Assembly: GCA_947184155.2 (NCBI GenBank)
Contig: CAMXCT020000843.1
Span: forward strand, 140,754 to 204,753
Origin: Cladocopium goreaui
Lineage: Eukaryota > Sar > Dinophyceae > Suessiales > Symbiodiniaceae
Reading direction: 5' to 3'
Length of the DNA stretch: 64,000 bases
The position numbers and the translations under genes were made by a program. Positions within the stretch are counted from its first letter, which is position 1. Each line of letters starts with the position of its first letter. Below the pieces are notes generated by a model. The model saw nothing but the letters and a program-made list of their open reading frames with translations, had not been told where the DNA came from and did no database searches. Shown here in pieces: positions 6,781-64,000 of the stretch.

Positions 6781-7366
6781 TTCCAACTGAACCATCTGGC
6801 CAAACCTGGCATCCCAAGCGCAGAAAGGTCTGAAAAGCATCGTTTTGGGCTTGAGCGGTCGGTGTCAACAAGCAGACGGCTTCCGAAGCCTCCCTACGTG
6901 TGGTCGAATCAATGACTCCGAAGGACTCATGAGAATCACCCTGTGTGAGCGATTCTCATTTCGAGGCAGCTCTTCAGTGAACTTAGAGGGGCATCCAATA
7001 TTCGTATTCGTAGTGTCACTGTCAAGAAAAAAACACATGTTGATTCATGCTGATATTTGCTGAAAATTCTCATATTCTCCCCATAAAATAGTTAGTGATG
7101 AAGTCAATAGAATATGAGTGAATATTCCACAAGACAGTATGGAATTTCGAGAACTTATGTCCAAAGTCTCTACCTTCCAGAAACCATAGCAGGACATCTC
7201 ACACGACAGTCAGTCGCCACGCAGAGATGGCAATTGAGTCCAGTGAAAATCTGAGGGGAAATCTTGGGATTTCCTGAACCATGGAATCCATGGAACTTCA
7301 ATGAACTTCATCAAATCCATGGGTCTCATCCATGGTTTTTTTTGAAATGCCCCGAGATTTTTGGGG

Positions 7367-17380: not shown

Positions 17381-17934
17381 TTGGGGATCTACGTCGGCTT
17401 ATGTTTGCTTGTGTGTGTGGAACATCTGTACAGATGAAAAACCTCCTTTGGATCTCTGGTGTTCTATTGATTAATCTGCAGGGGGACCATCCATGTACTG
17501 TGTGCGATGGTCCAACGAAGCGGCCACAGTACACGGCTCATCACCGTGACGTGCCTGCCTATTGATGTTTTATTCTGAAAATGGCGAGGGGCTAAGCCGA
17601 GAACCCCAGCAATGGATTTTGAATTTTACACGGTTGTCGCAATCTGAACTTATTTTCGACGTTATTTCCTACTTGGTTCATGTGGTATTCTTCGAGATGG
17701 CGAAGGGCTAAGCCGAGAACCCTGACATGGCCATTTATTTGACGTTTTGGATTATGGTTTTGTCTACGTTCAACGTTTTCGGAAGACCATCTATTTATTC
17801 GCGATTTTCATCGAAGAGATCTACTCTAGGTCCATGTTGCTAGTCTGATTTGCACGTTAAAGGGCTCAGTCCTGATGGATCTCCTAAAAGGATCTAAAAG
17901 ATCCAATTTTGTCTAGTGTGTGTTTGTTTGTTTT
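17381..17934. other. Non-coding stretch
   Basis: A ~30 bp phrase (ATGGCGA(G/A)GGGCTAAGCCGAG) occurs twice, at about 17,580 and 17,697. No gene was identified. Confidence 0.4.
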
Positions 17935-18455: not shown

Positions 18456-18519
18456 AACCCAAACAGCTCTTGAGCTGTTCTCAATTCTTGCTAGAAATGG
18501 CCTTTGTTCTCTCATGATT

Positions 18520-20305
18520 TGCTGCCCCCTCCTGGTTCCGGCTGGGGTTCCGGTGCTTGTCTCCCTTCTTCTCTCTTCTTTCTTTCCTCAGGAAAGGGGT
18601 TCTGTTCCATCATGATTTGCTGGTTCCTCCTGGTTCCGGCTGGGGTTCCGGTGCTTGTCTCCCTTCTTCTCTCTTCTTTCTTTCCTCAGGAAGGGGGTTC
18701 TGTTCCATCATGATTTGCTGGTTCCTCTTGGTTCCGGCTGGGGTTCCGGTGCTTGTCTCCCTTCTTCTCTCTTCTTTCTTTCCTGAGGAAAGGGGTTCTG
18801 TTCCATCATGGTTTGCTGGTTCCTCTCGGTTCCGGCTGCGGTTCCGGTGCTTGTCTCCCTTCTTCTCTCTTCTTTCTTTCCTCAGGAAAGGGGTTCTGTT
18901 CCATCATGATTTGCTGGTTCCTCCTGGTTCCGGCTGGGGTTCCGGTGCTTGTCTCCCTTCTTCTCCCTTCTTTCCTCAGGAAAGGGGTTCTGTTCCATCA
19001 TGATTTGCTAGTTCCTCTTGGTTCCAGCTGGGGTTCCGGTGCTTGTCTCCCTTCTTCTCTCTTCTTTGGTTCCGGCGCTTGTCTCCCTTCTTCTCTCTTC
19101 TTGGTTCTGTTCCATCATGATTTGCTGGTTCCTCTTGGTTCCGGCTGGGGTTCCGGTGCTTGTCTCCCCTTCTTCTCTTGTCTCCCTTCTTCTCTCTTCC
19201 TTCTTTCCTCAGGAAAGGGGTTCTGTTCCATCATGATTTGCTGGTTCCTCCTGGTTCCGGCTCGGGTTCCGGTGCTTGTCTCCCTTCTTCTCTCTTCTTT
19301 GGTTCCGGTGCTTGTCTCCCTTCTTCTCTCTTCTTTCTTTCCTCAGGAATCAGGGGTTCCTGGTTCCATCCTGATTTGCTGGTTCCTCCTGGTTCCGGCT
19401 GGGGTTCCGGTGCTTGTCTCCCTTCTTGTCTCTTCTTTCTTTCCTCAGGAAAGGGGTTCTGTTCCATCATGATTTGCTGGTTCCTCCTGGTTCCGGCTGG
19501 GGTTCCTGTGCTTGTCTCCCTTCTCTCTTCTTTCTTTCCTCAGGAAAGGGGTACTGTTCATCATGATTCGCTGATTCGCTGGTTCCTCTTGGTTCCGGCT
19601 GGGGTTCCGGTGCTTGTCTCCCTTATTCTCTCTTCTTTGGTTCCGGTGCTTGTCTCCCTTCTTCTCTCTTCTTTCTTTCCTCAGGAACGGGGTTCTGTTC
19701 CATCATGATTTGCTGGTTCCTCCTGGTTCCGGCTGGGGTTCCGGTGCTTGTCTCCCTTCTTCTCTCTTCTTTGGTTCCGGTGCTTGTCTCCCTTCTTCTC
19801 TCTTCTTGGTTCTGTTCCATCATGATTTGCTGGTTCCTCTTGGTTCCGGCTGGGGTTCCAGTGCTTGTCTCCTCTTCTTCTCTTGTCTCCCTTCTTCTCT
19901 CTTCCTTCTTTCCTCAGGAAAGGGGTTCTGTTCCATCATGATTTGCTGGTTCCTCCTGGTTCCGGCTCGGGTTCTGGTGCTTGTCTCCCTTCTTCTCTCT
20001 TCTTTCTTTCCTCAGGAAAGGGGTTTTGTTTCATCATGGATTTCCTGGTTCCTCTTGGTTCTGGCGGGAGTTCCGGTGCTTGTCTCCCTTCTTCTCTCTT
20101 CTTTCTTTTCTCAGGAAAAGGGCTCTGTTCCATCATGGATTTCCTGGTTCCTCCTGCTTCGGTCTGGGGTTCCGGTGCTTGTCTCCCTTCTTCTCCCTTC
20201 TTTCCTCAGGAAAGGGGTTCTGTTCCATCATGATTTGCTGGTTCCTCTTGGTTCCAGCTGGGGTTCCGGTGCTTGTCTCCCTTCTTCTCTCTTTTTGGAT
20301 TGCCT
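18520..20305 (+). repeat. ~98 bp satellite, about 20 copies
   Basis: The unit reads approximately TTGCTGGTTCCTCCTGGTTC, CGGCTGGGGTTCCGGTGCTTG, TCTCCCTTCTTCTCTCTTC, TTTCTTTCCTCAGGAAAGGGG, TTCTGTTCCATCATGA. Spacing between GCTTGTCTCCC words is mostly about 98 bp, with shortened units near 19.08, 19.31, 19.65 and 19.78 kb. The pyrimidine run plus CAG in each unit looks like a splice acceptor. Open frames across it are a by-product of stop-free units. Confidence 0.85.
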
Positions 20306-42004: not shown

Positions 42005-45000
42005 AGAGGATGCGAAAGGCCAAACGCTTTAACAACAAATGCCTATGGCCAGAGGGCTGGTCAATGCTGCCGCGAAGCACTTTACGGGTTTGACGCCTGG
42101 CAATCGGCAGGCTTGAACGCCCAAAGAACAGATGGCTACGGAGGCAAACGGCACGCTTGAACGCTCTAACAACAAATGCCATGCCTATGGCTAGAGGGCT
42201 GGTCAACGCTGCCGCAAAGCATTTTACGGGTTTGACGCCTGGCAATCGGCAGGCTTGAACGCCCTAAGAACAGATGGCTATGGCTATGGAGGCAGACGGC
42301 ACGCTTGAACGTGTAACAACAAATGCCTGTGGCCAGAGTGCTGGTCGAAGCTGCCGCGAGGCATTTTACGGGTTTGACGGCTGGCAAACAGCACGCTTGA
42401 ACGCCCTAAAAACAGATGACTCTGAAGGCAATCGCCAGGCTTGAACGCACTAATAACACCTAATAACAAGAAATGCTTGCGACCAGAGGGCCTGGTCGAA
42501 GCTGCCGCGAAGCATTTTACGGGTTTGAGGGCTGGCAAACGGCAGGCTTGAACGCCTAAAAACAGATGACTCTGAAGATCTCTGAAGGTGATTCTGAAGG
42601 TAGATGGCAAGCTTGAATGCTCTAACAACAAATGCCTGCGGCCAGGGGGCCTGGTCGAAGCGGCCGCAAACCATTTTACGGGTTTGAGGGCTGGCAAACG
42701 GCAGGCTTGAACGCCCTAAAAACAGATGACTCTGAAGGCAAATGGCAAGCTTGAACGCTCTAACTACAAATGCCTGCGGCCAGAGGGCCTGGTCGAAGCT
42801 GCCGCGAAGCATTTTACGGGTTTGAGGGCTGGCAAACGGCAGGCTTGAACGCCCTAAAAACAGATGACTCTGAAGGTCAATGCCAAGCTTAAACGCTCTA
42901 ACAACAATTGCCTGCGGCCAGAGGGCCTGGTCGAAGCTGCCACGCAGCAGTTTACGGGTTTGAGGGCTGGCAAAAGGCAGGCTTGAACGCCCTAAAACTG
43001 CTGCGAAGCATTTTACGGTTTTGAGGGGTGGCAAACGGCAGGCTTGAACGCCCTAAAAACAGATGACTCTGAAGGCAAACGGCAGGCTTGAACGCTCTAA
43101 CTACATATGCCTGCGGCCAGAGGGCCTGGTCGAAGCTGCCGCAAACCATTTTACGGGCTTGAGGGCTGGCAAACGGCAGGCTTGAACACCCTAAAAACAG
43201 ATGACCCTGAAGGCAAATGGCAAGCTTGAACGCTCTAACTACAAATGCCTGCGGCCAGAGGGCCTGGTCGAAGCTGCCGCGAAGCACTTTACGGGTTTGA
43301 GGGCTGGCAAATGGCAGGCTTGAACGCCCTAAAAGCAGATGACCCTGCAGGCAAATGGCAAGCCTGAACGCTCTAACAAGAAATGTTTGCGGCCAGAGAG
43401 CCTGGTCGAAGCTGTCGCGAAGCATTTTACGGGTCTGAGGGCTGGCAAACGGCAGGCTTGAACGCCCTAAAAACAGATGACCTTGAAGGGAAACGGCAGG
43501 CTTGAACGCTCTACGCTCTAACAAATGCCTGCGGCCAAGCTAGATGACTCTGAAGGCAAACGGCAGGTGCGAGCGGCCAGAGGGCTTGGTCGAAGCTGCC
43601 GCGCAGCATTTTACGGGTTTGCGGGCTGGCAAACGGCAGGCTTGAACGCCCTAAAAACAGATGACCCTGAAGGTGACTGTGAAGGCAGATGGCAAGCTTG
43701 AACGCTTTAACAACACAATGACTGCGGCCAGAGGGCTTGGTCGAAGCTGCCGCAAACCATTTTACGGGTTTGAGGGCTGGCAAACGGCAGGTTTGAACGC
43801 CCTAAAAACAGATGACTCTGAAGGCAAATGGCAGGCTTGAACGCTCTAACTACAAATGCCTGCGGCCAGGGGGCCTGGTCGAAGCTGCCGCGAAGCATTT
43901 TGCGGGTTTGAGGGCTGGCAAACGGCAGGCTTGCACGCCCTAAAACTGCCGCGTAGCATTTTACGGGTTTGAGGGCTGGCAAACGGCAGGCTTGAACGCC
44001 CTAAAAACAGATGACTCTGAAGGCAAACGGCAGGCTTGAACGCTCTAACTGCAGATGCCTGCGGCCAGAGGGCCTGGTCGAAGCTGCCGCGAAGCATTTT
44101 ACGGGTTTGAGGGCTGGCAAACGGCAGGCTTGAACGCCCTAAAAACAGATGACTCTGAAGGCAAATGGCAAGCTTGAATGCTCTAACAACAGATGCCTGC
44201 GGCCAGAGGGCCTGGTCGAAGCTGCCACGCAGCAGTTTACGGGTTTGAGGGCTGGCAAACGTTCAGGCTTGAACGCCCTAAAAGCGGATGACCCTGAAGG
44301 CAAATGGCAGGCTTGAACGCTCTAACTACAAATGCCTGCAGCCAGAGGGCCTGGTCGGAGCTGCCGCGAAGCATTTTACGGGTTTGAGGGCTGGCAAAAT
44401 GCAGGATTGAACGTTCTAAAAACAGATGACTCTGAAGATCTCTGAAGGTGATTCTGAATGCAGATGGCAAGGTTGAACGGCCTAACAACAAATGCATGCG
44501 GCCGGAGGGCCCGGGTTTGAGGGCTGGCAAAGAGCAGGCTTGAACGCCCTAAAGCTGCCGCGAAGCATTTTACGGGTTTGAGGGCTGGCAAACGGCAGGC
44601 TTGAACGCCCTAAAAACAGATGACTCTGAAGGCAAACGGCAGGCTTGAACGCACTAACAAGAAATGCCTGCGGCCAGAGGGCCTGGTCAAAGCTGCCGCG
44701 CAGCATTTTACGGGTTTGAGGGCTGGCAAACGGTAGGCTTGAACGCCCTAAAGACAGATGACTCTGAAGGCAAACGGCAGGCTTGAACGCTCTAACTGCA
44801 GATGCCTGCGGCCAGAGGGCCTGGTCGAAGCTGCCGCGAAGCATTTTACGGGTTTGAGGGCTGGCAAACGGCAGGCTTGAACGCCCTAAAAACAGATGAC
44901 TCTGAAGGCAAATGGCAAGCTTGAACGCTCTAAGCTGCCGCGAAGCATTTTATGGGTTTGAGGGCTGGCAAACGGCAGGCTTGAACGCCCTAAAAACCGA

Positions 45001-45300
45001 TGACTCTGAAGGCAATTGGCAGGCTTCAAGGCTCTAACTGCAGATGCCTGCGGCCAGGGAGCCTGGTCGAAGCTGCCGCGAAGCATTTTACGGGTTTGAG
45101 GGCTGGCAAACGGCAGGCTTGAACGCCCTAAAACAAACGGCAGGCTTGAACGCTCTACGCTCTAACAAATGCCTGAGGCCAGAGGGCCTGGTCGAAGCGG
45201 CCGCAAGGCATTTTACGGTTTTGACGCCTGGCAAACGGCACGCTTGAACGCCCTAACAACAATGGCTCTGGAGGCAAACGGCAGGCTTGAACCTACAAAA
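42005..45300 (-). repeat. ~138-141 bp satellite, about 25 copies
   Basis: The unit contains CAGATGACTCTGAAGGCAAA, CGGCAGGCTTGAACGCTCTA, ATGCCTGCGGCCAGAGGGCC, TGGTCGAAGCTGCCGCGAAG, CATTTTACGGGTTTGAGGGC. Several copies are truncated (near 43,010, 43,965, 44,510 and 44,947). Full units of 138 bp keep one minus-strand frame open and would give a 46-residue repeat (..RAFKPAVCLQSHLFLGRSSL..), but 140-141 bp units break it. No start or supporting context was found, so it is listed as a satellite. Confidence 0.85.

Positions 45301-52077: not shown

Positions 52078-52108
<31 letters not shown>
52061..52108 (+). repeat. (CG)n(CA)n alternating purine-pyrimidine tract
   Basis: CGCGCCGCGCGCGCGCGCAC runs into a (CA)n tract of about 30 bases. 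Such tracts favour Z-DNA in vitro, and a biological role here is speculative. Confidence 0.85.
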
Positions 52109-52785
52109 TAGACAAGAATGGATCATTATATGATCCGGCAGGAACTGAATCCTGAAACATGCAAACCAGCCTAGATTATTAGATGAATAAAAGAGCCACA
52201 TGAGGTACTTCTCGCAAACGATGTAGGGCATCCGAAATTGTCAAACGTAGTCATAACCAGATTCCATAGAGTTTTGACCAGCATGTGGAAATCCAAAATA
52301 ATGTTTCGGCGATTGTTTCCCAAAATAACCCATAGTTCGTCGGCGACAGGGTCTCGGCGAAAATAAGTCAAAAAACATAATACTGTCGGCGATATGGTTT
52401 CGGCGAAAATCTGAGGAAGGTTCTGATGCATGTAAATGTCAAAATTGGATTCCAGATTGCGTCAACAGTGCAGTAAATTGAAATTTCAAATGGAGTTGTG
52501 GAGGTTCTTGGGTTGAGCCTCTTCCCATTTCAGTAAATTGACGTCAGACCGTGATATTCAAGCATTGGATAGGTGTCTTCGTTGGCACCTGACCTATCCA
52601 TGCTCTCAGGTGCCCCCTGCAAATTAGTGAAAACCAATCAGAAGTTTTACATCTGTTCAGATGGTACACACACACACCTCGCATGTAGCGAGGTCGGATT
52701 TTTTGGAAGAACTTCGCTGGCGGAATCGGCAAGACACCAGTGAAAGTGAACCTGTAATAACCTAATGTACAAAAGGGCGGTCACT
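52109..52785. other. Non-coding region downstream of the ORF cluster
   Basis: A GTCGGCGA..TCGGCGAAAAT phrase occurs twice, at about 52,337 and 52,384. A hairpin-capable GGATAGGT..ACCTATCC lies at 52,567-52,599, about 190 bp past the stop of the last ORF, and could mark the 3' end of the cluster transcript. No element terminus (LTR, TIR, poly-A) was identified. Confidence 0.35.
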
Positions 52786-53511
52786 TCAGTCAGAAGAGGA
52801 ATTCGGAGCTTGTAGAAGGACTTCCATAGCATCGTGGAAGCTCATGCGTTCAACCATCGCCCAAGTCTGATCGAATTCCCCCGATGCCGTAGCAGCCTTC
52901 AAGGTGTCAGATAGATCTTTGGCTAATTCATGGATCCGGGTGGTCAGCCTTGGTTCATCTCCAGGAGATGTCGTCTCAATGGGCACATTGTGAAAAGGAT
53001 GGTGTCCATGTACAAGGGGAATCTCAAAATGATGTCGCCAATAGTCCGCTGTGCGCAGGGACCACTCCCAGTTGCCGGAGAGACCATAGAAATAGTGTTC
53101 AGGGTCACGACATCGGGAATGCCCTAACAAAGGAATTTCTTCAATGAATAGCTCCCTGGTGTTGTTGGAGTGGGTAATGACCTTGAATTGGATCTGGTGA
53201 ACCACGCGAGAAGAGAACTGAGCACGATGGAAGTAGTTGTGTGTAGAACTTGAGTCTGTCGGAAATGGAACGCCAGGAGGTGCTGGTCCTGAATATGTAT
53301 CAGAATGGGCCAGTGTACCCGTAGCAGGTGCCATACTGTCAGTTACCAAAGGTGCCGGAGTAGGGTTGGTCGTAGTGTCGGGAGCTCCTGAGTGACATAG
53401 TGCAGAAGTCGAGGCGTCTGGTACTTGAACTGGGTCGGTAGGAGCGAGTCCACGAGTAGAGTTCGCAGGCCAAGACAAGCCCGCCACGGTCGCGTCTCGT
53501 TTGTGTTCCAT
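52786..53511 (-). CDS. Cluster ORF I, unknown, paralog of ORF G
   Basis: I choose the ATG at 53,511 (MEHKRDATVAGLSWP). The frame is open further upstream, but that part contains a pyrimidine-rich TTGATGCTTCAG that looks like a splice acceptor. The protein is about 241 residues: a P/T/S-rich N-terminal half, then a conserved-looking domain with HQIQFKVITHSNNTRELFIE and LRTADYWRHHFEIPLVHGHH, and an acidic C-terminus. The central segment aligns with ORF G (LRTTANHWRRYYDVPIQP), so the two are paralogs. No known family. It is the last ORF of the cluster. Confidence 0.6.
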   Translation of the reverse strand: MEHKRDATVAGLSWPANSTRGLAPTDPVQVPDASTSALCHSGAPDTTTNPTPAPLVTDSMAPATGTLAHSDTYSGPAPPGVPFPTDSSSTHNYFHRAQFSSRVVHQIQFKVITHSNNTRELFIEEIPLLGHSRCRDPEHYFYGLSGNWEWSLRTADYWRHHFEIPLVHGHHPFHNVPIETTSPGDEPRLTTRIHELAKDLSDTLKAATASGEFDQTWAMVERMSFHDAMEVLLQAPNSSSD

Positions 53512-53774
53512 GGGTGAAACTGTCACAAATACGAGAAATAGTGCGACAACGGCTGAAGCATCAAGAATAGCAGAAGAAAGCCAATCCCGAAATTGATAAT
53601 ATTCACAAAAATGAAAAAAGTGAAATCCAGTCCTCAATCAAGTGGGTCAGTTGCGACGGAGAAGCCACAGCTCCAAGTCAAATAAAATAGAAATCGAAAA
53701 ATCCTTTGTGTTAGTGGGGTGTCAAGGAGGAATTGAAAACCCTGTAGCATGGTCTTTTTTGGCCGGCTAGTGCA

Positions 53775-54368
53775 TCAGGGCAGGATCACACCGGAGCTAA
53801 TTTTGTAGCATTTCAAGCGTAGTACGAAAGGCTGTCTGGTACCCGGGATGAGGAAAGAGGATTCGCGGGAATTGTACTGCCGAAGTCGCCACTCAGGTCG
53901 GTATGCCTCCAAAAGCTGCAAGACCGTCATATCATTGGAAACTTGGAATGTATCACCGTCCAAGTCGCAAAAGCGAAACTCCAGGTTCGAGGGATCAATT
54001 TGGATGTCCCATTGGGACCTCAATCTTTTGGAGATACAAAAGCGGAGTTCGGCAATTGGGATGAGGCCGGCTTCAACTGGTTCCATCTGACGTGACCAGG
54101 TAAACAAAGCTGCAAGTTCAAAGCCACTGACATGTCTAAAATTGGAGTTCACCAGAGCCATGTAGTGTTCACGGTCAGGTTCGCTTCGGTGAGTCAATGC
54201 CTGTAAGGGAGAGAAGTCAACCAAGATAAGGACAGGTCTGTTTGGAGGAGGGTTCACATCACCAGGGAGGCCTCGATGTCCAGCAATCCACCCAACGGTT
54301 CGTGTACCAAGCGGTGTCTCAATCGTAGATGTGGCGCGATATGGATTGGGTCGAGAAGAACGAGCCAT
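53775..54368 (-). CDS. Cluster ORF H, unknown, paralog of ORF F
   Basis: Start ATG at 54,368 (MARSSRPNPYRATSTIE), about 45 bases after a CCCATTTTGCAG acceptor-like word. The product is about 197 residues. NRPVLILVDFSPLQALTHRS aligns with HRPVIFQLDLKPMQQLAVRN of ORF F, and LLEAYRPEWRLRQYNSRESS aligns with LNWFYPRWKTHQHLDAFTTR. The order N-terminal basic segment, R-P-V-[IL] strand, R/Q-W-[SD]-I segment and C-terminal PF strand is shared. No recognised domain. Confidence 0.6.
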   Translation of the reverse strand: MARSSRPNPYRATSTIETPLGTRTVGWIAGHRGLPGDVNPPPNRPVLILVDFSPLQALTHRSEPDREHYMALVNSNFRHVSGFELAALFTWSRQMEPVEAGLIPIAELRFCISKRLRSQWDIQIDPSNLEFRFCDLDGDTFQVSNDMTVLQLLEAYRPEWRLRQYNSRESSFLIPGTRQPFVLRLKCYKISSGVILP

Positions 54369-54549
54369 TGCGTCGAATGTGAAGTATCGAGGATAAAGCG
54401 CAAAGCCCAAGCTGCAAAATGGGTTGGAATAGCCACAGGAACAAGCACAAAGTGTTAGAAATAAAAGAGAAACGGTGTACCTAGTAAATGGTCACACAAA
54501 GAGACGATGAATCACAGGTCTTTTTTCCGCCGACAAAGAATGTGGTATA

Positions 54550-55239
54550 TTACACACTTGAATCCGACATATCCATCGGGTCAATATCGTTCGCATCCAA
54601 CGGACCATGTACTTGTTGAGGAGGGACAGCGGGGCGAGTGAGATATACAGTACGGTGTAGTGTTGCCGGTGGGGAAGACGGTGGTGTAGACCGCCAAGGT
54701 GGCCAATATAAAGAGGTAGTGGTTCCTTGAGAATGGTGTTGGGCGGAGCGTCCCCAGCATGACTGTAAAATATGGAGGTGGTCCGGTATCGCTTCGTACG
54801 GCTGTGAGACATGGACGTTGGAGTGTTCAGGGTGTGGTAAAACGGGAACAGTAGTTGCCGTAGGGGAGGAGGATGATGGTTGAATTGGTACGTCATAGTA
54901 TCTGCGCCAATGGTTGGCTGTAGTACGCAAGGTTGCCTGGTCGTTGGTGAGGTGCATGTTCTCCAGGAATGTTTCCACTGGTTTCCACGTTTCAAGACCA
55001 TCAAGTGTCCTTTCCACGATCCAAAGTTCATCTGAACGGTTAGACAAAGGATAGCTCAGCTTCTTGATGAAGACGGAGTGGACAGTGGTAGAGGTCGGAA
55101 TCATTCTCGCTGCACGAGGAATATAGGATGCCGAGGTAGGATCATCCGGTGGCAAGTGTGAGGCAAGGCCATGTATGGATGTAGGTGGTGAACCGTGCGA
55201 GACCAATCGAGCAGGATCATCCGTGTTGGAGGTCATCAT
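54550..55239 (-). CDS. Cluster ORF G, unknown, paralog of ORF I
   Basis: Start at 55,239 (MMTSNTDDPARLVSHGS). 229 residues. A P/S-rich N-terminus precedes a domain with VHSVFIKKLSYPLSNRSDEL and NHWRRYYDVPIQPSSSS, then a Pro/Ser/Thr-rich tail ending MDMSDSSV. Upstream lies CCTTTTGGCTTCAG, an acceptor-like word. The shared W-R-x2-[YF]-[DE]-[VI]-P core links it to ORF I. Function unknown. Confidence 0.6.
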   Translation of the reverse strand: MMTSNTDDPARLVSHGSPPTSIHGLASHLPPDDPTSASYIPRAARMIPTSTTVHSVFIKKLSYPLSNRSDELWIVERTLDGLETWKPVETFLENMHLTNDQATLRTTANHWRRYYDVPIQPSSSSPTATTVPVLPHPEHSNVHVSQPYEAIPDHLHILQSCWGRSAQHHSQGTTTSLYWPPWRSTPPSSPPATLHRTVYLTRPAVPPQQVHGPLDANDIDPMDMSDSSV

Positions 55240-55458
55240 GTACGATCAAAAGAATATGATAGCGGGAAATACTAAACTGAAGCCAAAAGGCCGTGGGGAA
55301 GGTCAATGATGAAGGAATAAATAACGAATATCACCCACTGGCAAACGAGAAAAGGATGACACAAGGGAAAATCAGAACCGGGGTGGTGGACATCACAACG
55401 AATGTTGGTCTTTTTCCTCATAGACGTGAGCCGTGTCAAGATCCATCAAGACAGCTAA

Positions 55459-56193
55459 TCACTCAGCGGCTTTAGTGTATCGGGTGGCCGTGACGAATGG
55501 ATGTCCACGGGGAATCACTTGAACATGTACAGCAAAGCCAGTGTCTTGTGCATCTGGATGTGGTGTCAGCAGCAACGGAGAACACTCGCGGGTCGTGAAG
55601 GCATCGAGATGTTGATGAGTTTTCCATCTCGGGTAGAACCAATTCAAAACATCCAGAAGAGAATGAGGAAGGTCGTCAAGCATCTGAGCTCCTTGATCGG
55701 TGTCAATCATCATGTAGAACTCCGACGCTGGTAGGTGTATGGACCAGCGTTGTAGCAGTGTGTCGGTGACTACGGTTTTGAGGTCTGAAACGAAATGACT
55801 GCGAGCATAGTCCGGGTAGATGACCTTGAACGTCTGGAACAAGCTGTCATAGGTGGCCGTAGGAAGGTTGCCCGCGACATTGGGGGTCAAGATGTTGTAA
55901 TAAGGGTTGCGTACGGCCAGTTGTTGCATCGGCTTCAGGTCCAACTGGAAAATAACCGGTCGGTGAGGTGTCGGAGGCGAAGACCGGTTGGGTGGGTGCC
56001 GGAATGACGTAGAGCCCATAGCGGAAGACGACGTCCTAGTTGGAGAGCGTGAGCGTCGTGTAGGTGAGATCCTCTCGTGGGACATAGCTCGCTGTTGGCA
56101 ATAGCGGTCCAGGTGAACGCGGAGAGACATAATAAATGGCTGGCGGGTTGTGTGATACGACGTGTCAGAATTCAATGGGACAACAGCGTCCAT
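55459..56193 (-). CDS. Cluster ORF F, unknown, paralog of ORF H
   Basis: I prefer the ATG at 56,193 (MDAVVPLNSDTSYHTT), because TTCTTCTTGTTTATCTTCAG followed by AACCATGG immediately precedes it. An upstream in-frame extension would add a hydrophobic stretch but is probably leader. The product is about 244 residues. A basic RS-like segment (RISPTRRSRSPTRTSSS) is followed by a domain with YDSLFQTFKVIYPDYARSHF and QRWSIHLPASEFYMMIDTDQ. It is similar to ORF H through most of that domain. No known family. Confidence 0.6.
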   Translation of the reverse strand: MDAVVPLNSDTSYHTTRQPFIMSLRVHLDRYCQQRAMSHERISPTRRSRSPTRTSSSAMGSTSFRHPPNRSSPPTPHRPVIFQLDLKPMQQLAVRNPYYNILTPNVAGNLPTATYDSLFQTFKVIYPDYARSHFVSDLKTVVTDTLLQRWSIHLPASEFYMMIDTDQGAQMLDDLPHSLLDVLNWFYPRWKTHQHLDAFTTRECSPLLLTPHPDAQDTGFAVHVQVIPRGHPFVTATRYTKAAE

Positions 56194-56305
56194 GGTTCTG
56201 AAGATAAACAAGAAGAATATTCCCAAAATGAAGGCCAACGGGTTGGTGAAACAGTAATACCGTACCGCAACGTACCTTTTCCTTGTGATTCGCATATGTC
56301 AATGG

Positions 56306-56938
56306 TCAGCCAAGTTGGTCTTTGATCTTATTCCACATAGAGCGAACATCTTCTTCAGACTTGCCCATCTTGGTCGAGATCACCTTCCATGAAAATCGAG
56401 ATTTTTCGTCAACCTTCAGAGTGCGTAGTTTCTGTTTGTCTTCAGAGGTCCAGAGTGATAATGGGCTCGAGGAGCGGGATCGGGATTGGTCACGGCGGCG
56501 ACGACGCTTGGCAGGAGCCTTTGGAGCAGATTTGGCTTTCTGTTTGCGACTTGGCGGTGATGGTGTTCTAGTAGAAAGCTTCGAAGGTGCAGGTAAAACA
56601 TCAGGAGGCGGAGCAGCAACATGTTGGTGCGGCTCGGGAAGATGGGTTTCCACCAGTTCATCCATAAGTGTCTCTTCTTCTTCCAGATCCGGCGATGGGA
56701 TGGGGGCATTGTCAATGAAGGCATTGGTCTGGTCCGAATAGTGTGGTCGTAGGCCATCAGGTTGATTCCATACGTCTGTACTGGGAAGAGGAGTAGGTTC
56801 AATGTTGGGAATGAGAGTGGGTGGTAGTAGCGCCATTGCTCGATGTAGTAGAAGGTAAGCATGGTGAACATCATGAAGAAATTGAAGAAACACTGGTTCT
56901 TGGATCGGAATTGACGTCGTAGGAGACGAGGAAGCCAT
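56306..56938 (-). CDS. Cluster ORF E, Myb/SANT-like DNA-binding protein
   Basis: Start ATG at 56,938 (MASSSPTTSIPIQEPVF). An in-frame upstream extension is likely leader. The product is about 210 residues. The acidic centre (SPDLEEEETLMDELVE) is followed by a basic segment (RKQKAKSAPKAPAKRRRRRD) that could be a nuclear localisation signal. The C-terminus is a Myb/SANT-like helix set with three tryptophans: W in LWTSEDKQKL, W 21 residues later in SWKVISTKMGKS, and W 18 residues later in MWNKIKDQLG. This spacing is typical of Myb repeats. It may bind DNA in the nucleus. Its presence between RT and unknown ORFs is unusual for a retroelement. Confidence 0.65.
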   Translation of the reverse strand: MASSSPTTSIPIQEPVFLQFLHDVHHAYLLLHRAMALLPPTLIPNIEPTPLPSTDVWNQPDGLRPHYSDQTNAFIDNAPIPSPDLEEEETLMDELVETHLPEPHQHVAAPPPDVLPAPSKLSTRTPSPPSRKQKAKSAPKAPAKRRRRRDQSRSRSSSPLSLWTSEDKQKLRTLKVDEKSRFSWKVISTKMGKSEEDVRSMWNKIKDQLG

Positions 56939-57111
56939 GACAATGCGTCGAGTATGGGCCAACAGGTAAATGGAGCCGAGTTTGAGGGTAAGCCTGCTGG
57001 AAAAGCACTGTTCCGTGATCCAATAGATGCAAATAAGGTCCAAAGGGGTGAGACTTTCAGCAAGGTGTGAGCAGTGAAACGTAAGCGTCAGCGGCAAGAC
57101 AGTTCAGGATT

Positions 57112-59666
57112 TTACCACAATAAGGAAACGTGTAAATATTGACGAATCGGCTTGGCAGCAGCGAAGAGATCGGACTCGGCGAAACCGGCTGATCTGTACA
57201 AACGATGCAATGCGGCAAAACCTCGTGTCCGTTCATGTGTGGGGTGCGCACATTTGGCGACCAGAAATAATCGTGAAACAAAGCCTGAAAGTTGGACGGC
57301 CAAAGGTGATGCGGAGAATGGCGCCATGACCTGGTTGAGGTCGCGTGGAGGGCTGTAGCGGAGGGCAAAAGGCTCGAACTCGATGCAAAAGCCCAAGAAC
57401 TCCTGGTCCGGTTCAGTTTCCAAAATGATAGGATGGCCGTAGAACTCCGGGTGGAGGAAATTGGCGAAGCAAATTTCGTAGTCCCAGCTGGGGTCCGACA
57501 AGCACAATCTGTTGTCCACATAGCGAAGGAGGCGAGCTGTAAGATCCATGTTGCTAAGGGTGGTACGGTAAGTTTTGTACCAGATTTCTTCGGACAGTGC
57601 GACAACCATCATGCACAAAGCTGGACTCAGTGGGGAGCCCATAGGGGATCCTCGGATTTGTTCAAAAACCCTAGTGCCGATGGAGAATTGAGGATGGAGA
57701 ATTGAGTCATCTTCAAGGACATAAGGATGATGCGTTCAATGTCCCGAATGAAGATCTTCCTGGTCACATTGAGTGTACGGCATGTGCGGCCTTTTACTAC
57801 GTCCCCTGTGTTGTTGCCCGGAGTTGCCTTCACGGAGATGATCTCATCGGGGGCGGTATTCATGAGGGGCGAGAGGAACTGCAGGGTCAGTCGCCAGCTC
57901 GCGATGAAGCGGTCCGTGTCAATGCTTGTGAAAAAGCCCGCAAGATCTTGGTTGTGTATTCGTGGAGTGGGGAGCGAATCAAAGTCAGTGTCCTTGAGGA
58001 GCTTGATGAGATCGAATACATCACCCCTGGCCAGGTTGTGGGGAAACGCTTGAGGTAGAAGGTTGTAAATCAGCTTGGCGGTGCAGTTCAACATAGGTCG
58101 GAAAGGTGCCGTGAAGAAGCTGACAATAGGTCGTCCCGCCTTGAACTGTTTTTTCCTTTTGGGTAGAACATAGGCGTTCGGCAGATCTCGTCCAGCACCA
58201 AGTGCCCATGGGTATGAATTGCCAAAATGGCGATTGATCTCGGCGATGGTCCGCTCGATGATGTCGCTCGGGCTTTGCTCCAATTTGCGAAATACCAACG
58301 GGTCGGCAAAGGTGGTAGTGAGGCACTGGAAGTAGAGCACGGGGCAGTAGATTCGTAGGGATGTGGCTCGTTTGTCCTCGTTGTGGAAGACGGCTTCTGG
58401 AAAAAGACGTTTGAAACGGCTAATGTCTTTGTGAGTGATGTGGTTGTTGAGTGTGTGGTAGTGGGATTGAATAGAACGATGCCAAAGCTCATCAATATGG
58501 GGCTTTTGTAAGGAAGGGAGTGAGTGTCGGGTAGTCCATGTCCGCAAAGCCAGGCGAAGCGATGTCTGGATTTCTTTGGAAGGTGGGAAGATTTTGTTTT
58601 GAAGCGAACCAGTCGCAATGGATGTGTGTGGGCCATCATCAAAATGTAGGTTGTCGCCGTCGAGGACCAGGTGTTGATCGGGTGGGAGACCACGAAGAGC
58701 ATGAGGTCGCAAGGCATCACAGGCACACTTTGGGGTTTCGCCGTCAGCCCATTTGGTAGCGGCTTCTTTGTGATTGCACAAGCTATCCATCACCGAGGGG
58801 AACTTTGTGAAGACAATCGCCGTGGAAGGAGTCTGCAATGTGGTGTTGTAGTGTCGGGTTTGATGAACGTGGGAGGGGAGTAGGCGTCGAAGATCCCGAG
58901 TCCAATTGGGGCATAGTAGCCAAGGCGCACGAAGAGGAACCGGTTTTTTGACTCGTTTGGCTTTCCAGAAGGTCAAAGCTCGGTCAACGGCATTGACGGC
59001 GTACGACCTTTGGGGTTCTCCGAGGTTGTTGGCAAGACGTCGAATAAAATAGCAGCCTTGAACTCCAATTTCGTTGGATCGTAATTTCTTCTCCATGTGG
59101 AAGCGTCGAACGGAGTTACTGCCCAAATCCTGGATAATCTCCCAGAGTTGTACTCGTCGATGAAAGAGAGGACTGTGAAGAGCGTGTCGAACATGATGGG
59201 GTGTAGATCGCCAACGAAGCTTCCGCCACAAGGAGAATGTTCCAAATTGCCGAGAGGCAGAAAATTTGGTACGTGCAATGAGTCCCTTTCGGCAGTTGAA
59301 AAACTGGTAAATGAACGGAGTGTTCAATCGAGGTTGCCACAGTTGAATTAAGGCCTGTTCCAAGGCCCAAAAGTTGGATTTATTGGTGTAGATCGGGAAA
59401 ACAGACCACATCCAGAAATTGTCAAATCGACACCAAAACCGTAAGGCTACTTCGGCCAGCACGAATTTATGTTGTTGCACTTGCAGAAATTTCCGATAGC
59501 GAGAGTGTTCGCGGTCTAAAACAAATGAGGACGTGGAGCCAATGTAAAACTTAGGTTGAAAATTCGCAATGTGGCAGAAACGAATATACACCGCCTGGGG
59601 ATGCTTGAAACATTGGAGAGCGACAGACAAGTCATCCCAGGATCTGCAAAAGAAAATACTCTGCAT
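57112..59666 (-). pseudogene. Cluster ORF D, GIY-YIG endonuclease-reverse transcriptase, frameshifted
   Basis: Start ATG at 59,666. Residues 24-115 form a GIY-YIG-like nuclease: AVYIRF (Tyr 27), FYIGST (41-43 = YIG at 59,546-59,538), Arg-rich DREHSRYRKF, and Glu 103 in ALEQALIQLWQPRLN. A CACDAL cysteine pair lies mid-protein. The RT follows: AYVLPKRKKQFKAGRPIVSF, NQDLAGFFTSIDTDRF, then GSPMGSPLSPALC (about 57,620-57,654) and RYVDNRLCLSD (57,525-57,511), and a thumb-like FLGFCIEFEPF. Nuclease before RT is the permuted order described for some Penelope-like elements. Motif C is YVDN, not YVDD/YADD. An exact 14 bp tandem duplication (57,679-57,706) shifts the frame just before GSPMGSPLSP. The frame ends at TAA 57,112. 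Confidence 0.75.
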
Positions 59667-59898
59667 CGGAGTGCCTTTTTAGCAAGGCTTGGAGTTTCGG
59701 ATTGGCCCGTGGATGTAACAATACATATTGGCCCATCAATACTGTTTGAAGCATCCGAAAAGCAAAAAAGACATCAACAGAAGGGGACAACGTGAAAGGA
59801 GTCAATAGTGCGAGAACAAGAATACAGGAATGAGCCACGGCCAAAGTTCGCATAATGTTGGCTGCTTTTGAGCCAGGTGCTTTCAAATATGCTGCTAG

Positions 59899-60429
59899 TC
59901 AGGATTGCATCAATAACGCCACCGTCATGACCTTGAGGACTACTTCATCCGTGGAGGCCCCCTTGTGTTTGCAAGGGTCGATACCCATAGCCACGCTTGC
60001 GCGTTGGATAGTTTTCGAAGCATCATCGGGTTGGTTTTGCCACCATTCATTGACCTTTTCCAAGTTCTTCTCCAGGATGTCCTGTTTGGGCTGTGGTAGC
60101 TTCAAAGCTTTCAACCACTTGGTGTATTGAGTGTCCGACAATGATGTGGGTTGGTTGTCAACGAGCCAAGTGTTCACGGAGCCCGGAGAAATAAGCAGAG
60201 TTGAGGGTTCAAAGGTCGTAGACGCGGCAGGTTGTCCTTGAAGTGCACGTCCAATCGGTGTCGTGGCTGGAGTGGAGCCCGGAGGTGCAGTAGTTGGTGA
60301 CGTAGTAGCGGCCGATTTGACCTTGGCCAGTTCTGCCTCCAGTTCAAGAATGCGTTGTTGGCTGGCCACGTCAGCAGAAGGTTGAGTCGGGAGCCAAGAT
60401 TGGAGAAGTTGAGCAACATCTTTGGCCAT
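59899..60429 (-). CDS. Cluster ORF C, small Gag-like or unknown protein
   Basis: MAKDVAQLLQSWLPTQPSAD is followed by a heptad-like segment (RILELEAELAKVK), a P/T-rich linker, and a helical C-terminal domain with TQYTKWLKALKLPQPKQDIL, EKNLEKVNEWWQNQPDDASK and DEVVLKVMTVALLMQS. It is 176 residues. The ATG has a favourable AAAACATGG context and lies only 18 bp after ORF B. The length, coiled coil and helical domain would suit a structural nucleocapsid-type protein of a retroelement, but no zinc knuckle is present, so this is a guess. Confidence 0.55.
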   Translation of the reverse strand: MAKDVAQLLQSWLPTQPSADVASQQRILELEAELAKVKSAATTSPTTAPPGSTPATTPIGRALQGQPAASTTFEPSTLLISPGSVNTWLVDNQPTSLSDTQYTKWLKALKLPQPKQDILEKNLEKVNEWWQNQPDDASKTIQRASVAMGIDPCKHKGASTDEVVLKVMTVALLMQS

Positions 60430-60447
60430 GTTTTGGGTGGCCTCCTT

Positions 60448-61203
60448 TTAGTTGAGACATTGGCCTGCTGAACGAGCTCGGAATGTAGCGAGTTTGTCCA
60501 AGTCTACATTGCGAGTGCGTAGTTGTGACACCAATTCGGCCACAAATACTGTAGTGCCTATGTTGTCAAAAGGAAGGACGAAGGTTTCTCTTCCGTATGC
60601 AACTCGGCGAAGCCAAGTATTGTGTAAGCCCTGGTACAAGAACTTCCAGAGTGGGACTTGTAAAGGATCCATCCCTTCAATGTCCTTGTAGCTTGAAAAT
60701 CTGCTCTGTCGGATTCTAGAAGCGAAGTCCAAACCATTGATCTTGTTGGAGTCGTGGAAGTCGACATCAGGTTTCCAATTCTCAACTGGTGGGATTTCAA
60801 TTGGTCTGCATGTATATCCTTCGTTGACAGAAGAACTTGCTCCTGGGGATGACATAGGTCTCGGTGATCTCGGTGTAAAAGGGTGACGTTGAGGTGCAAA
60901 ACTGGCGTTGTTGGGGGGGGTCTGTGAGCTCGGAGGCGGCGTGGGCGGAAAAGGTGCCGTAGGCGAAGTCCATGGTGGGCGTGTTGGGAACGATGGAGAC
61001 GTAGGCGGTGGAGGCGGTATTCCGGATGGGTTCCAAAAGGGTCGATGGGTCGTCATGGCATAGTGCAACGGGCCACGGAACGCCGGTACTGCTTGGTGCC
61101 AACCATGTGGATGACGAGGTGGTGTGCGCGAGCGATCCGGCTGGGAAGGAGGAATTCCATTCATATCCGCGCTGTATTGGGAGATCAGGTCCTGGGACGC
61201 CAT
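60448..61203 (-). CDS. Cluster ORF B, proline-rich protein with conserved C-terminal domain
   Basis: I choose the ATG at 61,203 (MASQDLISQYSADMNG). Frames further upstream contain acceptor-like CATTTCTCGCAG and CATTCGGCAG. The product is about 251 residues. The first ~150 are proline-rich and disordered (IPPPPPTSPSFPTRPPWTSP). The remainder is protein-like: VENWKPDVDFHDSNKINGLD, LQVPLWKFLYQGLHNTWLRR and LPFDNIGTTVFVAELVSQLR. No known family. It ends TAA 18 bp before ORF C, too close for a separate trans-splice acceptor, so B and C may be expressed from one mRNA. Confidence 0.55.
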   Translation of the reverse strand: MASQDLISQYSADMNGIPPSQPDRSRTPPRHPHGWHQAVPAFRGPLHYAMTTHRPFWNPSGIPPPPPTSPSFPTRPPWTSPTAPFPPTPPPSSQTPPNNASFAPQRHPFTPRSPRPMSSPGASSSVNEGYTCRPIEIPPVENWKPDVDFHDSNKINGLDFASRIRQSRFSSYKDIEGMDPLQVPLWKFLYQGLHNTWLRRVAYGRETFVLPFDNIGTTVFVAELVSQLRTRNVDLDKLATFRARSAGQCLN

Positions 61204-61546
61204 GAGGTAGAGAGGGTCACAAGACAATAGGTCAAAATGCGCTCGAACTGCCGAATGAAAGCTGCGAGAAATGTCAGGGTGAGACAAGGATAGTGTGCGA
61301 GTGAAAAAGTGAAACATAATACGAGGTTCCAGTGTGTGAAACATAAGGTGAAAACGAATCTTGCGCAAGGATCCACAATATGAGCATGCGGCGAGTCACA
61401 AACCTTTTGAGGAAGAAGTGGCAGCAGTACCGAATGTCGGGAGAAGCATTGTTACTCCAAAATAATCGGGCAGGGCCACTAGGCTCACTGAATCGCCGAC
61501 GTAGAATAGTCGATACTTGTTCTGGTACTCCTCAAGGGTAAAGAAT

Positions 61547-64000
61547 TCACCAACGAGATTTGGAGTGGTGGGTCGAATGTCGAGAACGAGGTCGGCCTTC
61601 ATGGTGCTGGTCGCGAGAATGGTCGTCGTAATATGAGGATCGGCGATCTCGGCGGCTGTAGGTGGAATTGTCCCAAGCAGCATTGTCATGCCAAGATCGG
61701 CGAGCATAGTCCCGGGAGCCAGGGGTAGCAGTCTCGCGGCGGCTCGGTGTATTGTGAGAGTCGTCCGGGGCCGGCTCCGAAGGTTCTGGGGCGTCGGCAG
61801 AAGGGTCAGGTCGTACTGGACGTGCAGAATCATCAGGAGGTTCCGAAGGTGCATTGGTCTCCGCAGTCTGGTGTGTGATCAAGCCCGGGAAAACCTGGTG
61901 AGTGGAGGCGACGTAGCATATAGATGCAGCGCTTGTGTTCATAGCCGTTGCATTGTCTTTGCCCTTGGCGATGCCCGCAAGGTTGCACAAGCGTTGGATT
62001 TGGTCATTTCCTCCAGCTAGGGCACGGATGCATTTGGGTGAGCGGCATATGGCCAGCAGGCCTGATGGGTTTTGTCCTTTGCCTATTTTGTAAAGCTGAG
62101 AGGTACAAATCCTGACAGCATAGCCGGGTAGGTTGTCGGTGTCTGCGATCTCAGAGGACATTCCGAAGAACCCGTAACACGGGTATTGGGTCGGTATACC
62201 GGCTTCGTTTTTTGTCCAAGTTGCCGGGCGGATGCAGTCTTCAGCAAGAATTTTGGCAACTGATTCCCAACTTGTCTTGTGGTAGATCAGGTAGGTGCCC
62301 ATGTGTTCGCCACGGTAGATTAGTTTCTTCTTCAATCCTGTGGGAACCGTGATGGTCAGCAAGTTCTCTGGTTCAATATAGAAGGCTTGTGTTTGCTTTG
62401 CAAGTTCGATGTCCAGTAAGTCGGATTGTGCAAAGGCCCTGGCAATATTCCTGACGGTGGCTTGGCTCGCTTTGATCCAAATACAATGGTTGTTGACGGT
62501 GCGGTATGGTTTAGCCAACTGTTCGAACATCGCGTCCACAAACTGGTTGAAGAGCTGCAAGATAGCCGGGGTCAATGATTGGCGTAGAGGAACAACATGA
62601 TCGGGGCCAAGCTCGGTCAGGCATCGAACTCTATGGGGGTCATTGGCCGCCGCCACCATTTCATCGAGGTCGATGTCATTCGTGTCAAACTTGGTGAGCG
62701 AAATGGTATCAGCAACCTCAGAATTTTCACTGTCGCCGTCCGGAACTCGGAAGGACACCGCGCCGAGTGGTGCTGAAGTGTGGGTTGGTGGGTTGGTTTG
62801 TGGTTCCGATGGTGGTGGATCAGTAGGAGAATTGGGTCGAGCAGTGTGGTGGTAGGCGTCGTTGTAGTGGCTTTCGTTCCATGTACCCCAGGTGTCATCA
62901 GCATCAGGAGTAGGAATGTAGTTCGGATTGGATGGGTTTGCAGCAGGTCGAAGTATGACTTCACGGCCTCGGGATCGGTGACGTGTCGCGGAGCGTGGGC
63001 GTGGATGGGAGCGGTGACGTCGAGGGACCACAGGAGAGCGGCGTCGTGGTGGTGAGCGTCGTCTGTATGGAGATGGTGTTCTGCGGCTCTTGTCGGGTTT
63101 CGTAGATGATCGATGACGAGGGAGAGGAGAACGAGGTCGCTCTGTACGTGGAGGAGAATGGCGAAGGCGATAGGAATGTACAGAAGGTCGATGGGAACGT
63201 GATCTTGGAGTTCGGGATCGTGGTCGGCGTGTTGGTGGTGGTGGACCGTGTGGTTGGTGAGGAGGAGCGATGGTTGGAGCTGGGACAATGCGATGGTCCT
63301 GAACGTCCGGTTCGGTGGGTCTGGCCTTTGGTGCAGGTGGAGGCGTGGCGATCAGTGGTGGTGTAGGTGTAGGTGGCGGTATCTGTGGTGTAGGATTCGG
63401 TGGATGTTCATCTTGTTGAAGAAGGAGTTGACGTTGTTCGTGTGCCCGTTGAGAATCCATGAGTAATAGTTGCTGAGCTTGGATAAGTCGAACAGATTCG
63501 GCCAGTTGTTGTGCGGTGGAACCCAGGGATGCAAGTTCAGGTGGAACGGATGAAGTCGATGCTGTCTGAGGTGTCGATGGTGTAGCGTGAGGAGGGGTTT
63601 TCGGAGCTGGTCTGCGCGGTCGATCCGGTCTTTTGTCAGAGCGATGCCTGGGAGCTGCTTTGACTGCTGGGGGCCGTGGTGAAGGCTCATTTGGAGGGAT
63701 CGTCGATGCGTCCATCTGTAATGGAGGTTGAATGTGGTGAGGTGGGTATGGAGAACTGGGCAAAGGAGTCGGTGTCATAGTCGATGTAGGTGGTGTAGTC
63801 GATGTAGGGGATGGAGCCGAAGTGGAAGGCCACGCGGGTGGAGCGGTAGGTGCCATAGGAGATGGAAAAGTCGACGGAGCGGTGTGTACCATAGTTGGTT
63901 CAGGAGCCAAAGGTGAAGGCATGGTGGGTACAAGTTGTGGACCTGGTACTGCATGAGGAGCCGAAGTCAATGAGGTGAACGGCAACGATGTTGGGGCGGA
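61547..64000 (-). CDS. Cluster ORF A, large RS- and proline-rich protein, N-terminus beyond window
   Basis: The frame is open to the window edge, so the start is unseen. The N-terminal ~400 residues are proline-rich, then an RS/RP-rich block (RRRSPPRRRSPVVPRRHRSH) and an acidic spacer. Next is a folded-looking domain containing QLFNQFVDAMFEQLAKPYRT and GTYLIYHKTSWESVAKILAE, then YPCYGFFGMSSEIADTDNLP. The H-[KG]-T-S word followed by an IL..I.P stretch resembles the NAD-site start of ADP-ribosyltransferase folds (PARP/Tpt1), a weak resemblance. The C-terminus is again RS-rich. A different frame downstream (61,396-61,570) reads FTLEEYQNKYRLFYVGDSVS and ends SSSKGL, so the real C-terminus may lie there after a frame change. 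Confidence 0.55.
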   Translation of the reverse strand, partial: SAPTSLPFTSLTSAPHAVPGPQLVPTMPSPLAPEPTMVHTAPSTFPSPMAPTAPPAWPSTSAPSPTSTTPPTSTMTPTPLPSSPYPPHHIQPPLQMDASTIPPNEPSPRPPAVKAAPRHRSDKRPDRPRRPAPKTPPHATPSTPQTASTSSVPPELASLGSTAQQLAESVRLIQAQQLLLMDSQRAHEQRQLLLQQDEHPPNPTPQIPPPTPTPPLIATPPPAPKARPTEPDVQDHRIVPAPTIAPPHQPHGPPPPTRRPRSRTPRSRSHRPSVHSYRLRHSPPRTERPRSPLPRHRSSTKPDKSRRTPSPYRRRSPPRRRSPVVPRRHRSHPRPRSATRHRSRGREVILRPAANPSNPNYIPTPDADDTWGTWNESHYNDAYHHTARPNSPTDPPPSEPQTNPPTHTSAPLGAVSFRVPDGDSENSEVADTISLTKFDTNDIDLDEMVAAANDPHRVRCLTELGPDHVVPLRQSLTPAILQLFNQFVDAMFEQLAKPYRTVNNHCIWIKASQATVRNIARAFAQSDLLDIELAKQTQAFYIEPENLLTITVPTGLKKKLIYRGEHMGTYLIYHKTSWESVAKILAEDCIRPATWTKNEAGIPTQYPCYGFFGMSSEIADTDNLPGYAVRICTSQLYKIGKGQNPSGLLAICRSPKCIRALAGGNDQIQRLCNLAGIAKGKDNATAMNTSAASICYVASTHQVFPGLITHQTAETNAPSEPPDDSARPVRPDPSADAPEPSEPAPDDSHNTPSRRETATPGSRDYARRSWHDNAAWDNSTYSRRDRRSSYYDDHSRDQHHEGRPRSRHSTHHSKSRW

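What the first reader, a model, noticed from the sequence alone, without database searches (positions are those of the whole stretch)
52786..64000. Nine-ORF one-strand cluster around a GIY-YIG reverse transcriptase
Nine tightly packed minus-strand ORFs (A-I) lie in a gene-poor landscape. One is a GIY-YIG-RT protein, one a Myb/SANT-like protein, and the others have no family I recognise. Known Penelope-like elements carry one or two ORFs, so a unit of this size would be a new kind of large retroelement or an integrated virus-like element.
Basis: partly seen in the sequence, partly recalled or inferred. Interest (0 to 1): 0.9.

Follow-up and report, generated by a model that had tools for sequence, protein, structure and literature searches.

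The report
Giant telomerase-like retroelement with RNA pseudoknot
The gene cluster is the cut-off end of a 13-kb, eight-gene jumping element that copies itself through RNA; its copying enzyme resembles telomerase, it inserts at GT repeats, and its ends carry a strongly conserved RNA knot of no known family, which may help to explain how telomerase and such elements are related.

Summary
The nine minus-strand ORFs are real. They are the truncated, partly broken copy of a 13.1-kb multicopy retroelement (the window stops at a contig end). The RT protein has an N-terminal GIY-YIG-like motif, and its predicted fold matches telomerase first: a Penelope-like layout at 2-3 times the usual PLE size. 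All 23 3' ends read lie in (GT)n.
New: each TR carries an RNA pseudoknot (P0/P1/P2) whose stems differ almost completely between copies yet keep pairing (19 of 25 pairs with double changes); no Rfam family fits; the pattern occurs 2,303 times genome-wide, control 0. 5' and 3' TR types agree in 29 of 34 copies typed at both ends (7.9 expected), which points to one TR per RNA template: a circular or tandem RNA, primed on (CA)n. Stem - GU tract - pseudoknot is the layout reported for telomerase RNA. The virus reading is unsupported. Host (probably a dinoflagellate), RNA form, the role of the pseudoknot, and the endonuclease and PARP-like domains remain unproven.

The parts
61547..64000 (-). ORF I (872 aa in an intact copy; its start lies 159 bp beyond the contig end). 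Pro/Ser/Arg-rich N-terminal half; C-terminal domain with a weak PARP/ART-like fold match
59899..61344 (-). ORF H/G: one 481-aa ORF in intact copies, split by a stop in the window (60448-61344 and 59899-60429)
59895..59901 (-). UGA CUA G stop context between H/G and the in-frame RT frame (readthrough candidate)
57112..59666 (-). RT ORF (908 aa from ATG, 923-aa open frame in most copies): N-terminal GIY-YIG-like motif, telomerase-like RT, YVDN motif C; broken here by the duplication at 57679-57706
56306..56938 (-). Myb/SANT-like ORF (210 aa), below Pfam's curated cut-off
55459..56295 (-). ORF F (278 aa), paralogue of ORF B
54550..55239 (-). ORF C (229 aa), paralogue of ORF A
53775..54368 (-). 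ORF B (197 aa)
52786..53511 (-). ORF A (241 aa)
52677..52693 (-). stem CCTCGC..GCGAGG directly 5' of the GU tract (its last G is the first base of the tract)
52666..52677 (-). internal (GT)6 tract at the body/TR junction; inserted elements begin in such a tract
52104..52677 (-). 3' terminal repeat of the element up to its terminal CTTGTCTAGTGTG; beyond it runs (GT)n of the target
52530..52620 (-). pseudoknot region P0/P1/P2 (type W, partly degenerate in this copy: 34.7 bits against 90 for intact type W)

Best explanation
The cluster is one copy of a 13.1-kb autonomous Penelope-like retroelement: TR - ORF I - ORF H/G - (UGA-CUAG) - GIY-YIG/RT - Myb - F - C - B - A - TR. Shown: the unit, its termini, its repetition, insertion at (GT)n, the RNA pseudoknot, matched TR types, telomerase-like predicted RT fold. 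Inferred: the template RNA carries one TR per unit, as a circle or a tandem transcript. The telomerase-like RT binds the pseudoknot, the GIY-YIG domain opens a (GT)n/(CA)n tract, a CA-rich 3' end pairs with the internal GUGUG after CUUGUCUA and primes reverse transcription; the RT copies the TR, then the whole body, then the TR a second time and stops in the (GU)6 tract, whose CA copy joins the other side of the target by microhomology. This yields TR-body-TR with identical TR types at both ends, and predicts solo TRs and head-to-tail arrays, both of which are seen. H/G and RT are probably also made as a readthrough fusion.
For: Unit and termini; 3' ends in (GT)n in 20 of 20 further copies and in copies A, B and the window; 3' TR at the fixed offset in 19 of 19 more; 5' TR at the expected place in 17 of 20 stretches and 16 of 18. 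RT and TR-body junction lie 5,011-5,039 bp apart in 11 of the 15 RT copies on contigs within the range C30-C776 listed (worked out by hand; C103, C722, C740 have no exact junction there, C693 is too near its contig end). Pseudoknot; no fitting Rfam match. Matched TR types: 29 of 34, 0 of 100,000 permutations; in a second sample of places, partly overlapping in type, 17 of 18 neighbouring pairs. Tandem triplets at 1283/1283 and 1133/1154 bp; solo TR in the window. Telomerase fold. Selection. UGA CUA G in 30 of 30 distinct copies found (35 loci, five of them second reads of the same copy), with PMC4359377 (passages).
Confidence: 0.68

Rival explanations
1. Ordinary target-primed insertion of a linear RNA that already carries both TRs; TR types match because both are inherited from one parent, and type changes arise later by gene conversion.
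For: 29 of 34 matches are also expected under plain inheritance; five mismatched copies exist.
Against: Seven types sit on RT proteins 98-100% identical, so types seem to have been swapped; every swap would have to be mirrored at both ends. Solo TRs and evenly spaced tandem triplets need extra events.
Confidence: 0.22
2. The pseudoknot is a new self-cleaving ribozyme that replaces the hammerhead of other PLE repeats and makes the unit-length RNA that is then circularised.
For: PLE and Terminon repeats carry hammerheads and retrozyme RNAs circularise (PMC7761336, PMC11167929, passages); here conserved positions outside the stems (CAACGAAG, GTA) and a compact structure without Rfam match.
Against: No cleavage data; the layout stem - GU tract - pseudoknot fits a polymerase-bound RNA as well.
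Confidence: 0.3
3. An integrated virus or virus-like element.
For: Eight ORFs, 13 kb, an H/G - RT readthrough layout like gag-pol.
Against: No relative in viral contigs; no capsid, envelope, protease or integrase family among the Pfam hits.
Confidence: 0.04
4. A conventional LTR retrotransposon with added ORFs.
For: Long direct terminal repeats, matched at both ends.
Against: Predicted RT fold nearest to telomerase; no integrase, RNase H or protease in Pfam; ends lie in (GT)n rather than in a duplicated short target.
Confidence: 0.03

Closest known systems
Chlamys/Naiad-type Penelope-like elements (GIY-YIG before RT)
   Same: GIY-YIG-like motif N-terminal to a telomerase-like RT. That this order defines the clade is recalled (Craig et al. 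2021 not held); a Chlamys PLE is reported from Ectocarpus (PMC12477816, passages).
   Different: 13.1 kb and eight ORFs against 4-6 kb and one or two (PMC6431247); ORF I, H/G, Myb and F/C/B/A modules; pseudoknot TR; YVDN motif C (whether known members have it was not checked).
Terminons of bdelloid rotifers (giant PLEs)
   Same: Large PLE-type element with many accessory ORFs (PMC6431247, passages).
   Different: Terminons lack the endonuclease of the RT protein (some carry a GIY-YIG-like accessory ORF), sit at telomeres and carry hammerheads; this one has an endonuclease-like motif fused to RT, ends in (GT)n, and has no hammerhead match.
Poseidon PAc (Anolis) PLE
   Same: pLTRs, and reverse transcription that starts inside the template RNA at an AC-rich stem loop (PMC11167929, passages).
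   Different: Single ORF, C-terminal endonuclease, AT-rich target, hammerhead.
Telomerase RNA (and the analogous DRT2 RNA)
   Same: Template 3' of a stem and 5' of a pseudoknot, used by a telomerase-type RT (layout from PMC12039810, passage).
   Different: Here inside a protein-coding element; stems hypervariable; no fitting Rfam match; observed 3' ends use a second GU tract downstream of the pseudoknot.
Retrozymes
   Same: Small non-autonomous relatives, tandem units, circular-RNA model (PMC7761336, passages).
   Different: No hammerhead; pseudoknot instead.

Membership tests
Penelope-like elements | RT nearest to telomerase | tested here: met
Penelope-like elements | GIY-YIG endonuclease domain | tested here: inconclusive
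   Motif residues Y89, Y103/G105, R114, E165, N177 invariant or nearly so in 15 sequences (assignment to the motif recalled); Pfam GIY-YIG E 0.19-0.21, below cut-off; low-confidence part of the model.
Penelope-like elements | terminal repeats (pLTR), tandem tendency | tested here: met
   553-555-bp direct TRs, 99.8-100% identical within two copies; tandem triplets of pseudoknot-bearing units.
Penelope-like elements | hammerhead in the pLTR (common, not universal) | tested here: not met
   No hammerhead in Rfam searches of the window and six TR loci.
Chlamys/Naiad clade | endonuclease motif before RT | tested here: met
   Order in A1, subject to the inconclusive domain call above; the clade definition is recalled.
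Chlamys/Naiad clade | place in an RT tree | not tested
   No reference PLE sequences were at hand.
Terminons | RT protein without endonuclease, attached to telomeric repeats | tested here: not met
   Endonuclease-like motif present; 23 of 23 3' ends read lie in (GT)n, not telomeric repeats.
PARP/ART fold (ORF I) | ART fold | tested here: inconclusive
Telomerase RNA | pseudoknot downstream of a template tract behind a stem | tested here: met
   Layout in the 13-kb family and one non-autonomous family; this is architecture, not homology, and that the tract is a template is inferred.
Telomerase RNA | used as template by the bound RT | not testable with these tools
   Needs biochemistry.

The most novel reading that the evidence does not exclude
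The element is a mobile relative of telomerase: a telomerase-type RT that works with a telomerase-RNA-like module (stem - GU template tract - pseudoknot) lying in its own terminal repeat, by which it extends (CA)n ends and then copies a 13-kb gene-bearing RNA. The hypervariable, always compensated stems act as a private lock that keeps each RT-RNA lineage apart, and are exchanged as cassettes. If true, this would be a living intermediate between retroelements and the telomerase ribonucleoprotein.
Probability: 0.22. Interest if true: 0.96.

Novelty: new variant of a known kind. Interest (0 to 1): 0.86.

Why it matters
PLEs share an ancestor with telomerase (PMC6431247, passage), yet none of the listings (10 of 13 and 8 of 12 papers shown) is about a telomerase-RNA-like RNA in a PLE. 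An abundant element that joins a telomerase-fold RT to a conserved pseudoknot beside a simple-repeat tract makes the RT-RNA link testable in vitro. It also shows a PLE-type element reaching 13 kb and eight ORFs, probably outside rotifers, gives a new structured RNA family with over 2,000 places in one genome, and offers a natural tag (TR type) for following how both repeats of one insertion are made. If the host is a dinoflagellate it adds a group: PLEs were said to be unreported in TSAR before Ectocarpus (PMC12477816, passage).

Tried and rejected
Known ribozymes: no Rfam match that fits at E up to 5 (the few rows listed are unrelated RNAs). PARP by sequence: none. Viral relatives: none. Shared contig lengths between RT, ORF I and F/B hit lists were dropped as evidence, because chance sharing is not negligible. 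The 559 exact TR-body junctions are not a copy number of this element: the same 41-mer also stands in the 1.5-kb non-autonomous element of L037. Copies left out of the 34 typed at both ends: C2528 and C1697 (one end not fetched), C3847, C6183 and C1424 (no 5' TR read), C1209 (5' TR cut), C2377 (5' masked), C1476 (5' missed), C752 (3' off contig). C6163 and C3379 share a 3' flank and may not be independent. Type n58 was left out of the alignment (no CCTGC); it keeps P1 and P2; the further hits L053:3-78 and L037:7027-7102 resemble n58, so they are not independent of it. Type F's P2 pairing is weak on its own (234 of 5,000 shuffles), and so is L037:7689-7766, whose P1 was not parsed (138 of 2,000). 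P0 is invariant in the nine types; its only compensatory change seen is L053:3-78. ORF I, F, B and A alone show no significant excess of synonymous variants (only 4-7 copies each). Host identity: the rRNA search and a spliced-leader pattern did not complete; 'dinoflagellate' rests on one named hit (Durusdinium trenchii, P0075, 60% identity over 69%).

No claim of absence from print is wider than these searches: (open-licence PMC only; listings, in part cut, and the passages named). Craig 2021 and Arkhipova 2017 are not held and are recalled. One search failed (term too short). All papers cited were seen as passages only.
Full report
1. What is in the window. The nine minus-strand ORFs are there. 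The window is the last 64 kb of contig C843 of a 1.17-Gb genome, so the element is cut by the contig end. Pfam sees only weak Myb (E 7e-4, below its cut-off) and GIY-YIG (E 0.21) matches among the rows that fit.

2. It is one repeated unit. The RT ORF has 65 scored matches of 98-100% identity, the window's own included (1,717 first-look candidates, 65 scored). Two 40-kb stretches around other copies share the whole block with the window: one holds a 9.1-kb insert within ORF I, the other an 8-kb insert behind its 5' TR. Two copies without large inserts, on C5754 and C557, are 13.1 kb with 553-555-bp direct TRs that are 99.8-100% identical within each copy. The C5754 copy has eight ORFs: I 872 aa, H/G 481, RT 908, Myb 210, F 278, C 229, B 197, A 241. 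The C557 copy has a deletion in RT and a frameshift in ORF I. In the window, H/G is split by a stop and RT by a 14-bp duplication.

3. Ends. All 20 further 3' ends read CCATTCTTGTCTA followed by at least GTGTGTG and then flank, as do copies A, B and the window: 23 of 23. In 19 of 19 more copies the 3' TR stood at the fixed offset from RT (one further place lay off its contig; the very end was not read there). 5' TRs stood at the expected place in 17 of 20 stretches (C3847 and C6183 without, C1424 only 131 bases read) and 16 of 18 (C2377 masked, C1476 without). All 16 5' flanks printed end in GT-rich sequence; C280 lacks that start. In four of the 20 3' flanks another family member starts directly after the (GT)n. 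The exact TR-body junction 41-mer occurs 559 times, control 0; at least one related non-autonomous element shares it.

4. Genes. Fourteen RT relatives at 42-79% identity keep, with single exceptions, the NQDLAGFF, GSPMGSPLSP and YVDN motifs. The predicted RT fold hits telomerase before all others, over residues 344-779, which should include the part aligned to the RNA-binding region of telomerase (that label is recalled). RVT_1 is found in 14 of 15 sequences, best E 4e-5. Between H/G and the in-frame RT stands UGA CUA G in 30 of 30 distinct copies found, the high-readthrough context of PMC4359377 (passages); in a relative (P0087) the two are fused (by eye). F and B, and C and A, are paralogues (E 1e-8 and 4e-7), so a two-ORF module was duplicated. 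ORF junctions recur in relatives (by eye). Variants among copies are skewed to synonymous ones (93 to 73, p 3e-13; RT 46 to 29, p 4e-9). ORF I's C-terminal domain has PARP-type neighbours at low Z (47 of 50 rows, 3.3-4.4) with no support from Foldseek or sequence.

5. The RNA. Each TR has GCAGG - P1 - P2 - P1' - CAACGAAG - P2' - hairpin in most types - ACGTACCTGC. Copies with near-identical bodies carry at least seven types of it (A, B, W, D, E, F, G). On nine types of several families 90% of 219 cells pair (64.5% in shuffles, 29-49% when slid), 19 of 25 pairs show double changes, covariation score 0.647 against 0.173, 0 of 500 shuffles. A model holding only P0 and P1 found further members; in one, P0 itself is changed on both sides and P2, not in the model, pairs (3 of 2,000 shuffles). 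Genome-wide the pattern has 2,303 matches, 0 in the reversed control; the 48 rows printed with letters fall into 18 types at the similarity cut used, in which P1 and P2 pair better within than between types (0 of 20,000 permutations each). Rfam has nothing that fits.

6. How it copies. 5' and 3' types agree in 29 of 34 copies typed at both ends; permutation mean 7.9, maximum 20 in 100,000. The exceptions are C3379, C902, C280, C1112 and C1698. In a second sample of places, 17 of 18 neighbouring pairs agree; the other pair is 539 bp apart. Types thus seem to be swapped between lineages but nearly always at both ends together, which a single TR in the template explains. The 3' end of an element is the internal CTTGTCTA-GTGTG of the TR, where in the 5' TR a conserved hairpin follows; the 5' end is the (GT)6 tract at the body-TR junction. 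A circle read once plus one TR gives this structure; a shorter run gives the solo TR at 17411-17922, longer runs give tandem triplets. Retrozyme circles read into multimers and internally started PLE synthesis are known (PMC7761336, PMC11167929; passages).

7. The telomerase parallel. Directly before the (GT)n tract lies a stem: CCTCGC/GCGAGG in the 13-kb family, CCCTGCC/GGCAGGG in a 1.5-kb non-autonomous relative. Stem - repeat template - pseudoknot is how telomerase RNA is described in PMC12039810 (passage). With a telomerase-fold RT this is a striking parallel, though the observed 3' ends use the GU tract beyond the pseudoknot, and only two families were compared at the internal junction (two more such stems stand in 5' flanks, L079 and L082; most 5' flanks have none, as expected for target DNA).

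8. Verdict. A new large variant of the Penelope-like kind with a new RNA family; not a virus. What is unproven: the host, the form of the RNA, ribozyme or RT-binding role, readthrough, the endonuclease and the PARP-like fold.

Noticed in passing
window 17411-17922, + strand: A solo terminal repeat of another family: GT tract, hairpin, pseudoknot..TTTTGTCTAGTGTG.
   Followed up: partly
L037 ~5754-7254: A ~1.5-kb non-autonomous element with TRs 89% alike and its own stem before the GT tract, next to the C902 copy.
   Followed up: partly
L031-L032 (C2347:404290-413393): 9.1-kb insert with terminal inverted repeats and a 2-base duplication (TC); ORFs rich in LEKA/LEKG repeats; looks like a DNA transposon (class by eye).
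   Followed up: no
L035-L036 (C902:490758-498808): 8-kb insert behind the 5' TR with an 876-aa frame; resembles a DIRS-type element (reading by eye).
   Followed up: no
L043 and L052: C6163 and C3379 copies share the same printed 3' flank, so they are haplotypes or a duplication, yet their 5' TR types differ (B and E).
   Followed up: no
RT ORF, motif C: VDN instead of VDD in 14 of 15 aligned sequences (YVDN in 13, SVDN in one; YVDH in the fifteenth), in elements that have clearly multiplied.
   Followed up: no
window 18505-20293 and 42023-45133: Long tandem arrays with ~98-bp and ~138-bp units.
   Followed up: no
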